Of a stretch of 64,000 nucleotides of DNA, positions 60,025 to 64,000 are shown piece by piece. This stretch comes from Centipeda noxia ATCC 43541. GTDB taxonomy: Bacteria > Bacillota > Negativicutes > Selenomonadales > Selenomonadaceae. Position 1 is the stretch's first letter. Each line of letters starts with the position of its first letter. The stretch lies in contig NZ_GG749280.1 of the NCBI RefSeq assembly GCF_000160555.1, forward strand, positions 175,890 to 239,889, written 5' to 3'. Made by a program: the position numbers and the translations under genes. The notes under the pieces are model-generated. The model was not told the DNA's origin. It searched no databases and was given only the letters and a program-made list of their open reading frames with translations.

Positions 60025-60052
60025 AAAAACCCCCGCGCACGCTGCGCGGAGG
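60025..60052 (-). terminator. Terminator of the interrupted tRNA-Pro gene
   Basis: Minus strand CCTCCGCGCA...TGCGCGGGGG and T5. It stands 17 bases after the CCA of the tRNA fragment, as expected for the original tRNA gene, and shows that the element has split the tRNA from its terminator. Confidence 0.8.
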
Positions 60053-60068
60053 TCCCTATGCTGAAAAA

Positions 60069-60114
60069 TGGTCGGAACGACGAGATTTGAACTCACGACC
60101 TCTTCCACCCCAAG
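60069..60114 (-). tRNA. 3' fragment of tRNA-Pro (UGG), an attachment site
   Basis: On the minus strand 46 bases read from the anticodon loop (CTTGGGGT, anticodon UGG) through the T arm (GTGAG-TTCAAAT-CTCGT) and acceptor strand CGTTCCGACCA. The matching 5' half (acceptor CGGAACG, D arm) is absent upstream: the next bases do not form an anticodon stem with GGAAG and no CGTTCCG occurs on the plus strand nearby. This is the displaced 3' end of a tRNA gene, the usual scar of tyrosine-integrase insertion. The intact tRNA should lie to the right, outside the window. Confidence 0.85.
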
Positions 60115-60156
60115 CAACTCAAAAGGCTCGGGGCCCAAATTCAAACAATAGGAACG

Positions 60157-60168
60157 CTACACATTAAC
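60157..60168 (-). repeat. 12-base repeat shared with the integrase promoter region (left copy)
   Basis: Minus strand GTTAATGTGTAG, 43 bases inside the attachment site. The same 12 bases are on the plus strand at 63454-63465, and similarity continues (18 of 21 positions). Candidate integrase arm-type or excisionase binding site. Confidence 0.55.
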
Positions 60169-60263: not shown

Positions 60264-60269
60264 GCAGAC

Positions 60270-60303
60270 GAACCCCTATAGGCATAGGCGGCTACTTCTT
60301 CAC
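60270..60303 (+). repeat. 5' arm of the long-distance complementary pair
   Basis: The 34-base arm (GAACCCCTATA, bulge GGCAT, then the 18 bases 60286-60303) is complementary to all 29 bases at 60451-60479, with only the 5-base bulge unpaired. It brackets the toxin ORF. Confidence 0.85.
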
Positions 60304-60336
60304 CTCTCCGACTCTATAAGCGGGAGGTGATGCGAT

Positions 60337-60408
60337 ATGAGTTATTACGAGTTCGTTTTTGTTTTAGTTCTCGTCACTGGCTACATCATCAGCATAAAAA
60401 AGAAATAA
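60337..60408 (+). CDS. Small hydrophobic peptide, candidate type I toxin
   Basis: 23 codons: ATG at 60337, TAA at 60406-60408. GGGAGGTGA (60322-60330) is a strong ribosome-binding site. The peptide begins MSYYEF, has an uninterrupted hydrophobic core (VFVLVLVTGYIISI) able to span a membrane, and ends in KKK, the classic plan of Gram-positive type I toxins (holin-like, TxpA/BsrG style). Its mRNA would start ~67 bases upstream and its 5' and 3' ends can pair. An antisense RNA covers its last codons. No search was possible, so the family is assigned by architecture. Confidence 0.7.
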   Translation: MSYYEFVFVLVLVTGYIISIKKK

Positions 60409-60489
60409 CCGCCCTACTTTGACACGGTAAGCGGTTATTCCCGTCTTTCTGTGAAGAAGTAGCCGCCTTATAGGGGTTCTTCTCTTTGT
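60395..60489 (-). ncRNA. Antisense antitoxin RNA candidate
   Basis: About 95 bases on the minus strand from the promoter at 60496-60524 to a complete intrinsic terminator: AATAACCGC (plus-strand 60431-60439 complement) pairs with GCGGTTATT (complement of 60404-60412), followed by TTCTTTTTT. The RNA is fully complementary to the end of the toxin ORF and its 3' untranslated region, including the 3' arm, so it can compete with the mRNA's own folding. Confidence 0.7.
60451..60479 (+). repeat. 3' arm of the long-distance complementary pair
   Basis: 29 bases (GTGAAGAAGTAGCCGCCT... to GGGGTTC) whose complement repeats the toxin mRNA 5' end. In the antisense RNA, the same sequence lies ~10-15 bases from its 5' end. 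Confidence 0.85.
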
Positions 60490-60495
60490 GTCTTT

Positions 60496-60755: not shown

Positions 60756-61277
60756 ATGCTAAAACGACTAGGTGTTATGTGTCTATGGGTCTATATTTCT
60801 CTTTGTTCTATGGTGCTAGCCGCTCCTGTTGCTCCTACATATGCAGAGCAGACGTTAGATAATCCTATTGATGGTGGATTCCTCTTGCAAAAGACTGCTA
60901 CAGGTGCTATAGTCGTTCCCCACAATTATCCACTTGTTGTTCAGTTCAGTGTATATTATCAAGAAAATGAATTTTACTTTGGAGATATATCCCTTTTACA
61001 GTTCAATAAAAAACCTCCCGTAGATATTAAACAAGTAATTTTATTATCGGATTTCAGAACCATTGAACTTCCTGATAAAGACCACAAAAGAGATACAGGC
61101 TTAGAATATACGACCGATGCCTTTATGATACCTTCATCCCTCGGCGGTAACTTAAAGGGATTCTTCAGACTTCCTAGCAGTAAGATTGTCTTACGGATTA
61201 TAGACAATAAGAATATGCTACACGATTATTTTCTAGATATGGATTTTATAGAGCAAATTAAAAAGACCCTACTCTAA
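60756..61277 (+). CDS. Secreted hypothetical protein of the integrated element
   Basis: 173 residues with a clear signal peptide (LWVYISLCSMVLAAPVAPTYA). GGGGAG lies before the ATG. The mature part is beta-rich, with no cysteine and no known motif. AT-rich codons mark it as belonging to the acquired element rather than the chromosome. It ends at a terminator, so it is a single-gene unit. Confidence 0.7.
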   Translation: MLKRLGVMCLWVYISLCSMVLAAPVAPTYAEQTLDNPIDGGFLLQKTATGAIVVPHNYPLVVQFSVYYQENEFYFGDISLLQFNKKPPVDIKQVILLSDFRTIELPDKDHKRDTGLEYTTDAFMIPSSLGGNLKGFFRLPSSKIVLRIIDNKNMLHDYFLDMDFIEQIKKTLL

Positions 61278-61525: not shown

Positions 61526-62077
61526 ATGAAAGTTGGCTATGTGAGAGTATCCACCGTGGAGCAGCACGAGGAAAGACAAACAAGGGACTTGACAGAGGCA
61601 GGAGCGGAAAAGCTCTTTCTTGACAAACTGAGCGGCAAAGACACAAACCGCCCCGCCTTGCAGGAAATGATAGAGTTCGTACGCGCAGGTGATACCGTCC
61701 TTGTGTCTGAGTTCTCACGGCTTGCCCGCAGCACGCGCGACCTATTGGACATCGTGCAGACCTTGCAAGATAAGGGAGTGACCGTCATAAGCCGAAAAGA
61801 ATCCCTTGACACCTCCACACCGCAGGGGCGCATGATGTTGACGGTTATAGCAGGTATGGCAGAGTTCGAGCGCACACTTATGCTGCAAAGACAAAAGGAG
61901 GGAATAGCGATAGCAAAGGAACAGGGAAAATACAAAGGCAGACAAAAAACAGAGAAGCCCAAAGAGTGGCAAGAATGGCGAGAACAGTATCAGACGAGAC
62001 AGATCACAGCAACGAAACTGGCTGAACGCTGCGGAGTCTCCCGCCCCGTCATCTATAAGTGGCTGAAGGAATCCTAA
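61526..62077 (+). CDS. Serine recombinase (resolvase/invertase family)
   Basis: 183 residues from ATG 61526 (GAGGAGG upstream). VGYVRVSTVEQHEERQ carries the nucleophile Ser9; FLDKLSGKDTNRPALQEMI, VSEFSRLARSTRDLLDIV and AGMAEFERTLMLQRQKEGI are catalytic-domain motifs. The C-terminal HTH is ITATKLAERCGVSRPVIYKWL. It resolves dimers or inverts DNA. No clear inverted crossover sites are seen beside it. Confidence 0.92.
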   Translation: MKVGYVRVSTVEQHEERQTRDLTEAGAEKLFLDKLSGKDTNRPALQEMIEFVRAGDTVLVSEFSRLARSTRDLLDIVQTLQDKGVTVISRKESLDTSTPQGRMMLTVIAGMAEFERTLMLQRQKEGIAIAKEQGKYKGRQKTEKPKEWQEWREQYQTRQITATKLAERCGVSRPVIYKWLKES

Positions 62078-62379: not shown

Positions 62380-62931
62380 ATGTATGGCAACAAGACTAAC
62401 AAAAAGCAGAGAAGAAAAGAGGGTTTTATAGCAGGGACTCTCAAACTCCATGCCTCTCTCAATAAAGGAGGCAGTAAGGAAATCTCTCATGCCCTTCTGC
62501 TTTCTAAGGTGCGAGGGATGGTTAAAACATGGAAACGCTTTGCAACGCGAAAAGAGCTGCATTGGAAACTCTTCCTTGTACTTTCTGATTGGTCTGAATC
62601 AAAAAGGTGTAAATCTGATTTGCATGTGCATTTCTTACTCTATTCTTCTGCTGCCTCTCTAAGCGGGGCATTCTTTCAGAATTGGTGGAGCAGTAATAGC
62701 ATGGGAGGATTTAAGCAGGTGCTCGTGAAGCCCTATCTATCGAATCGAAAGACCACAGTTCGCTTTCCGATTGACTTTGGGTGGTTTAACTATGTCAGGG
62801 AGAACTATAGGTTCAGCACTCACAAGAATAAGTGGGAACTATGCTCTGATTCTTTGGTTAATCATTCATGGCTTATGCTTGGTCTTCCTGAGAGGGTAAA
62901 TAGTGCTGAGTTCTTAGGGCTTGCATGGTGA
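62380..62931 (+). CDS. Possible HUH replication protein (degenerate Rep-like)
   Basis: 183 residues, with AGGAGG 9 bases before the ATG. WKLFLVLSDW could be motif 1 and SDLHVHFLLY carries an HxH motif as in HUH Rep/relaxase enzymes. Next come a Trp-rich helix (FFQNWWSS), QVLVKPYL, and FNYVRENYRF, which may hold the catalytic Tyr. Order and spacing match rolling-circle Reps, but the motifs are weak and no Lys follows the Tyr as usual. AT-rich palindromes downstream could be an origin. Confidence 0.4.
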   Translation: MYGNKTNKKQRRKEGFIAGTLKLHASLNKGGSKEISHALLLSKVRGMVKTWKRFATRKELHWKLFLVLSDWSESKRCKSDLHVHFLLYSSAASLSGAFFQNWWSSNSMGGFKQVLVKPYLSNRKTTVRFPIDFGWFNYVRENYRFSTHKNKWELCSDSLVNHSWLMLGLPERVNSAEFLGLAW

Positions 62932-63066: not shown

Positions 63067-63378
63067 ACGCTCTTTAAAGGGATAAGAGGCGAAATACAGA
63101 AACCTTCTTCCCGCAGAGACTCTAAGGAGAGAAGTATTTTTTGCAAAGTGTTTTGTCCACTTAATGTCAAAAACCTATTCTGTTTCCTTGTTTAGGTATG
63201 TGGGATATATAAAACTATATCAAAGCACCTAAGAACAGTTTTAGGGGCACTCTCGTGTGCGTAATAACGGAATACGAGACAAGGAAGAGGGGTTCTGATG
63301 CGACATCATCCCTGCTTTTCAACAAACACGCTATTTGGCGCTCGAGAACATCACGGAGGATAGAGAGGCAGCCGGTTA

Positions 63379-63411
63379 GGGCTTCCCGAGGAATCGGGAG
63401 GCTCTTTTTTT
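63379..63411 (+). terminator. Terminator upstream of the integrase gene
   Basis: GCTTCCCG-aggaat-CGGGAGGC stem, followed by T7. It implies a plus-strand transcript ending here with no ORF, possibly an untranslated RNA. Confidence 0.8.
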
Positions 63412-63453: not shown

Positions 63454-63465
63454 GTTAATGTGTAG
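63454..63465 (+). repeat. 12-base repeat shared with the attachment-site region (right copy)
   Basis: GTTAATGTGTAG, 28 bases before the integrase ATG and the inverse of the copy at 60157-60168. May be both an integrase arm site and an autoregulatory operator. Confidence 0.55.
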
Positions 63466-63492
63466 TGCTTCTATGCAAAGGAGCGTTACATA

Positions 63493-64000
63493 ATGAGCGA
63501 CACAATCACAATGACAAAAGAGCAGTTACAGGAAGCCATGAAGGAGGTATTGCAGGGGCTTCCCGCCATCCAGACACAACCCGCCATGAAGGGCGAGAGC
63601 ATCGCCTTTAAGGAATATGGCGACAAGTACATGAATGACAAAAGCCGCACCGTGGCAAAGACAACCCATTCCAAGAGCGCGTGCCTCTATCGTGTGCAGC
63701 TCCTGCCCGCATTCGGGGAACAGCCACTAGCGGCAATCACCCGTTCACAGGTGCAGGGATTCGTAAACGCTATGGCAGACCACCCCTACAGCATGGAGAC
63801 CATCAAGGCGACAAAGTGCCTCCTATCCTCCATCATGGCGCTTGCCGCATCTGATCAACTTATCCCTGTTAACCCCTGTAAGGCGGTTAAATTGCCAAAG
63901 GTGGAGCCGAACAAAAAGCGAGCCCCCAGCATGGAGGAGTTCAAGCGACTCATGAAAGCAAGTGAAGGGCATCGGCTATGGATTGCCATCCCTCTCCTCT
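63493..64000 (+). CDS. Tyrosine integrase (C-terminus cut by window edge)
   Basis: 169 codons open to the right edge, from ATG 63493 (AAAGGAG at 9 bases). The N-terminal SAM-like DNA-binding domain is seen: AFKEYGDKYMNDKSRT, YRVQLLPAFGEQPLAAITRSQVQGF, MALAASDQLIPVNPCKAVKLP, then the start of the catalytic domain (KRAPSMEEFKRLMKASEGHRLWIAI). The R-H-R-Y residues lie outside the window. Presumably drives insertion at tRNA-Pro. Confidence 0.88.
   Translation, partial: MSDTITMTKEQLQEAMKEVLQGLPAIQTQPAMKGESIAFKEYGDKYMNDKSRTVAKTTHSKSACLYRVQLLPAFGEQPLAAITRSQVQGFVNAMADHPYSMETIKATKCLLSSIMALAASDQLIPVNPCKAVKLPKVEPNKKRAPSMEEFKRLMKASEGHRLWIAIPLL

What the first reader, a model, noticed from the sequence alone, without database searches (positions are those of the whole stretch)
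60025..60168. tRNA-Pro 3' fragment and orphaned tRNA terminator mark an element boundary
Only the last 46 bases of a tRNA-Pro are present, still followed by an intrinsic terminator, with AT-rich mobile genes starting right next to it. This is the outcome of tyrosine-integrase insertion in a tRNA gene, and it predicts the intact tRNA-Pro at the far end, on the minus strand beyond base 64,000.
Basis: partly seen in the sequence, partly recalled or inferred. Interest (0 to 1): 0.65.

Follow-up and report, generated by a model that had tools for sequence, protein, structure and literature searches.

The report
Small mobile element in proline-tRNA gene
A 4.6-kb mobile element inserted itself into a proline-tRNA gene, left the old tRNA tail and its terminator stranded at one end and rebuilt the gene at the other; this is a well-known kind of event, and this copy looks like the intact survivor of a lineage that related bacteria keep mostly as fragments with a small toxin-like gene.

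Summary
Bases 60069-60114 are the last 46 bases of a tRNA-Pro (minus strand), followed by the tRNA's native terminator (60025-60054); G+C drops from 57% to 43% there. The predicted intact gene exists about 630 bases beyond the window (window-frame 64627-64703, minus strand), but its anticodon is GGG, not UGG. The copies share an exact 49-nt repeat, 4558 bp apart, from the anticodon loop to three bases past CCA. A tyrosine integrase (63493-64527) lies beside the rebuilt tRNA. In nine other genomes of the genus the tRNA runs directly into the same terminator and nfeD: the empty site. A distant element in another genus (29-30% integrase identity) has the same architecture and also a 49-nt repeat. 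New details: (i) the element brings its own terminator for the rebuilt tRNA, and comparable hairpins replace the native one in four more genomes of the genus; (ii) a 23-residue toxin-like cassette persists at this tRNA in related genomes where no integrase remains; (iii) a 183-residue orphan protein has a weak relative near the distant integrase. Ordinary mechanism; new member of a known kind.

The parts
60025..60054 (-). Native intrinsic terminator of tRNA-Pro, stranded by the insertion
   Evidence: Hairpin plus T-run; its homologue follows the intact tRNA directly in nine genus genomes
60066..60114 (-). Displaced copy of the 49-nt att repeat; 60069-60114 is the tRNA-Pro 3' fragment (46 bases)
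   Evidence: Exact match to the second copy at window-frame 64624-64672
60148..60168 (+). Candidate integrase arm site, inverted copy at 63454-63474 just before the integrase (86% of 21 nt)
   Evidence: a similar motif flanks the decayed fragment in G002; function inferred
60266..60490 (+). Toxin-like cassette: peptide ORF 60337-60408 in an RNA whose 5' and 3' ends pair
60756..61277 (+). 173-aa protein with a signal-peptide-like start, function unknown
   Evidence: No Pfam or PHROG hit
61526..62077 (+). Serine resolvase, 183 aa
   Evidence: Pfam Resolvase, E = 7e-44
62380..62931 (+). 183-aa orphan protein with an HVH motif; weak relative near the G032 integrase
   Evidence: no family hit
63493..64000 (+). 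Tyrosine integrase, 344 aa; continues beyond the window to window-frame 64527, followed by the element-borne terminator (about 64568-64606), the second att copy (64624-64672) and the intact tRNA-Pro(GGG) (64627-64703, minus)

Best explanation
The window's right end holds a 4558-bp integrative element inserted by its own tyrosine integrase into tRNA-Pro(GGG). The element's attP carried a copy of the 3' part of the tRNA, from the anticodon loop to just past CCA, plus its own terminator. Strand exchange near the anticodon-loop end of the 49-bp common core joined the chromosomal 5' half to the element-borne 3' half, so the tRNA stays whole. The original 3' half with its native terminator was pushed 4.6 kb away, next to nfeD. 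Shown: both att copies, the integrase, the empty site in relatives, the replaced terminator and a parallel element in another genus. Inferred: the exact crossover, the catalytic act, and whether the element can still excise.
For: Exact 49-nt repeat in the same orientation with the fragment downstream of the intact tRNA; full-length integrase beside the rebuilt tRNA; empty site tRNA-terminator-nfeD in nine genus genomes; G+C shift; independent element with the same architecture and a 49-nt repeat in G032; decayed fragment plus native terminator in G002; common cores of this size covering the tRNA 3' half are usual for such integrases (PMC10865867; PMC4383910).
Against: No circular form or excision was observed. 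No excisionase gene was recognised. The integrase has no close relative in the genomes searched (best about 34% identity), so its specificity is inferred from position.
Confidence: 0.96

Rival explanations
1. The fragment is a decayed or partly duplicated tRNA unrelated to [12 protein letters not shown] integration (segmental duplication or pseudogene).
For: A 3' tRNA fragment alone could arise this way.
Against: The repeat is exact over 49 nt and stops at the anticodon loop, an integrase abuts the intact copy, the native terminator is beside the fragment while the rebuilt tRNA has a new one, and relatives show the empty site.
Confidence: 0.02
2. The insertion happened as described, but the element is now immobile: a shrunken remnant of a larger element that has lost excision or transfer genes.
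For: Small size, long gene-poor stretches, no recognised excisionase, and clearly decayed kin at the same tRNA in G002, G003, G004, G012 and G031.
Against: The 49-nt repeat has no mismatch, the integrase is full length, and the G032 element is smaller still (about 3.3 kb, integrase plus one main other protein), so compactness may be native.
Confidence: 0.35

Closest known systems
tDNA-targeting genomic islands (Islander class, anticodon site, 3' fragment; PMC4383910)
   Same: Intact tRNA and displaced 3' fragment in the same orientation flank an integrase-bearing element; core starts at the anticodon loop
   Different: Near the small end of the 2-200 kb range; carries its own tRNA terminator, a point I did not find discussed in the papers held
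Tyrosine-integrase prophages of actinobacteria at tRNA genes (PMC10865867)
   Same: Common core of 30-49 bp that includes the tRNA 3' half and restores the tRNA at one junction
   Different: No phage structural genes; different host group
AapA/IsoA and hok/Sok type I toxin-antitoxin mRNAs (PMC6733600), for the cassette only
   Same: Small hydrophobic peptide; RNA with 5'-3' long-range pairing and a hairpin over the ribosome-binding site; some hok-type loci are split by insertion elements, as in G012
   Different: Peptide looks unrelated by eye; no antisense RNA and no toxicity shown

Membership tests
tDNA-integrated genomic island (Islander criteria) | Intact tRNA gene plus a fragment of it in the same orientation, 3' fragment downstream | tested here: met
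tDNA-integrated genomic island (Islander criteria) | Tyrosine integrase gene between them | tested here: met
   Pfam Phage_integrase E = 3.7e-26
tDNA-integrated genomic island (Islander criteria) | Length between 2 and 200 kb | tested here: met
   4558 bp
tDNA-integrated genomic island (Islander criteria) | Uninterrupted site in relatives | tested here: met
   nine genus genomes
tDNA-integrated genomic island (Islander criteria) | Excision and circular form | not testable with these tools
   needs reads or PCR
Type I toxin-antitoxin (cassette 60266-60490) | Short hydrophobic peptide with a structured mRNA | tested here: met
   23 aa; fold z = -7.2; long stem 92.6% paired over nine copies
Type I toxin-antitoxin (cassette 60266-60490) | Antisense RNA antitoxin and toxicity | not testable with these tools
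   needs transcript data and expression tests
HUH-type replication initiator (183-aa ORF) | HUH motif and a downstream tyrosine | tested here: inconclusive
   HVH and one Tyr shared by three weakly similar proteins
HUH-type replication initiator (183-aa ORF) | Match to a known Rep or relaxase family | tested here: not met
   No Pfam, PHROG or PDB sequence hit; the predicted model had pLDDT 42, so the fold itself was not tested

The most novel reading that the evidence does not exclude
A lineage of very small integrative elements, with an integrase and an uncharacterised HUH-like replication protein, uses tRNA-Pro(GGG) across the family and brings its own tRNA terminator. One branch carries an addictive type I toxin cassette whose mRNA is held shut by a 5'-3' stem, and the cassette outlives the element at the tRNA as a fossil.
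Probability: 0.3. Interest if true: 0.5.

Novelty: new member of a known kind. Interest (0 to 1): 0.33.

Why it matters
The boundary itself is textbook. Its value is a precisely mapped element with its empty site, a remote counterpart and a series of decayed remnants at one tRNA gene. That makes two things testable: whether such elements routinely replace the terminator of the tRNA they rebuild, and whether toxin-like cassettes persist after the mobile element has died.

Tried and rejected
tRNA-Pro(UGG): the rebuilt gene reads GGG. Plain duplication: excluded by the empty sites. Prophage: of the three proteins scanned against PHROGs only the integrase hit, and no relatives of the integrase or orphan protein turned up in viral contigs, nor of the orphan protein in phage records. 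Plasmid relatives of the orphan protein and its two kin: none. Structure prediction of the orphan protein: confidence too low to use, so no fold search was run. Rfam hits near the fragment (Leu_leader, BjrC68) are far below gathering scores, so chance. The weak match of the orphan protein in G110 lies among ordinary chromosomal ORFs that look by eye like recF and gyrB, so chance. A possible integrase C-terminal scrap in G063 (DIYCH by eye) was not significant by tblastn. The one genome-contig scan with the integrase found only a 27% Lachnospiraceae match.

Full report
Observation. On the minus strand, 60114-60069 is the last 46 bases of a tRNA-Pro ending in CCA; ARAGORN finds no tRNA gene in the window and no 5' half adjoins it. 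Directly downstream (60054-60025) is a strong hairpin with a T-run; the 49-nt stretch holding it folds at -24.4 kcal/mol. G+C falls from 57.2% to 43.3% at this point.

The predicted partner. The window is G000:C17:175890-239889, and the same sequence recurs at C17:240513-240561. In the fetched stretch L003 (window coordinate = L003 coordinate + 59610) ARAGORN finds an intact tRNA-Pro, anticodon GGG, minus strand, at window-frame 64627-64703. The copies share an exact 49-nt repeat (60066-60114 and 64624-64672, start-to-start 4558) from the anticodon loop to three bases past CCA. Between them, next to the rebuilt tRNA, is a 344-aa tyrosine integrase at 63493-64527. A pattern search allowing three mismatches finds only these two copies in the genome.

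Empty site. I joined the two flanks in a script and compared the result with 12 genomes of the genus; a 13th was read directly. In nine of the 13 (G001, G005-G011, G013) tRNA-Pro(GGG) is followed at once by the homologue of the stranded terminator and then nfeD (for G010 only tRNA and terminator were read). This is the pre-insertion arrangement and shows that the terminator is the tRNA's own.

Replacement terminator. In the window's genome the rebuilt tRNA is followed by a different hairpin with a TTCAGT/ACTGAA core. In G002, G003, G004 and G012 a comparable hairpin stands at the same point instead of the native one. In G031, another genus, the stretch spanning hairpin and tRNA matches the element's end at 91%; in G063, a third genus, a similar hairpin can be read by eye. 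These sites look like present or past insertions of the same kind. G002 also keeps a decayed tRNA fragment with the native terminator and the candidate arm motif. So 5 of 14 genus genomes, the own one included, bear the mark.

A distant parallel. G032 (same family, other genus) has two tRNA-Pro copies flanking about 3.3 kb, with an integrase of 29-30% identity beside the rebuilt tRNA, a 49-nt repeat from the anticodon loop to two bases past CCA, a terminator at the displaced fragment and another at the rebuilt gene. G044 has two related integrases in tandem, the second ending about 100 bp from the 3' end of a tRNA-Val.

Cargo. A serine resolvase, a 173-aa protein with a signal-peptide-like start, and a 183-aa orphan. 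The orphan resembles the 201-aa protein near the G032 integrase (21% identity over 164 aligned positions, E = 1e-5 for that single comparison) and, through it, a protein in G130 that lies on the 5' side of tRNA-Pro with a resolvase-like ORF nearby. All three share HVH and a later tyrosine, which suggests a small HUH-type protein, but no family, PDB sequence or usable model confirms it.

Toxin-like cassette. At 60266-60490 lies a 225-nt unit encoding MSYYEFVFVLVLVTGYIISIKKK. Its RNA folds at -90.9 kcal/mol (z = -7.2) with the two ends paired and the ribosome-binding site in a hairpin; the opposite strand also folds well (z = -9.0). Across nine copies the long stem is 92.6% paired, against 44-58% for slid controls, with nine double changes (0 of 500 shuffles). 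Many one-sided changes are to G-U, which keeps pairs on this strand only, so the peptide strand is the likelier structured RNA (inference). The 3' part of the unit also occurs alone at other loci. Copies or pieces sit beside tRNA-Pro in G002, G003, G004 (piece), G012 (split by an IS3-like insertion, judged by eye), G031 (two full copies plus pieces, with insertion sequences) and G063; none of these loci gave an integrase match by tblastn. Other copies lie elsewhere, mostly away from tRNA genes. The closest described behaviour is that of AapA and hok mRNAs (PMC6733600). Toxicity and an antisense RNA are not shown.

Verdict. The finding is correct. Its mechanism is standard tDNA integration at the anticodon site (PMC4383910; PMC10865867), and it is a new member of a known kind. 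Literature searches found nothing specific in the held library, which is weak evidence because many papers are not held.

Noticed in passing
window 60266-60490; L052, L054-L057, L062, L063, L065, L091, L092: Multi-copy cassette of a 23-aa hydrophobic peptide in an RNA closed by a long 5'-3' stem, in 11 of 14 genus genomes (some only as pieces) and in two other genera; candidate type I toxin-antitoxin family.
   Followed up: partly
window 62380-62931; L039 4038-4643; L046 2093-2704: Three weakly similar small proteins with an HVH motif, all found near tRNA-Pro; possible uncharacterised HUH-type protein.
   Followed up: partly
L015 629-1967: Remnant in G002: decayed tRNA fragment, a RelB/RelE-like pair (by eye), the toxin-like cassette and the element-type terminator, no integrase match.
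   Followed up: partly
L007 929-1005 and L012 1254-1330: In G003 and G004 the tRNA-Pro 3' half carries the same substitutions, with paired T-stem changes, perhaps an element-borne 3' half that stayed after the element was lost.
   Followed up: no
window 63290-63410: Gene-poor stretch before the integrase ending in a terminator-like hairpin; possible small RNA.
   Followed up: no
L046 2093-2970: In G130 the HVH-motif protein and a resolvase-like ORF lie on the 5' side of an intact tRNA-Pro, opposite to the usual side for such elements; the contig starts too soon to see the far end.
   Followed up: no
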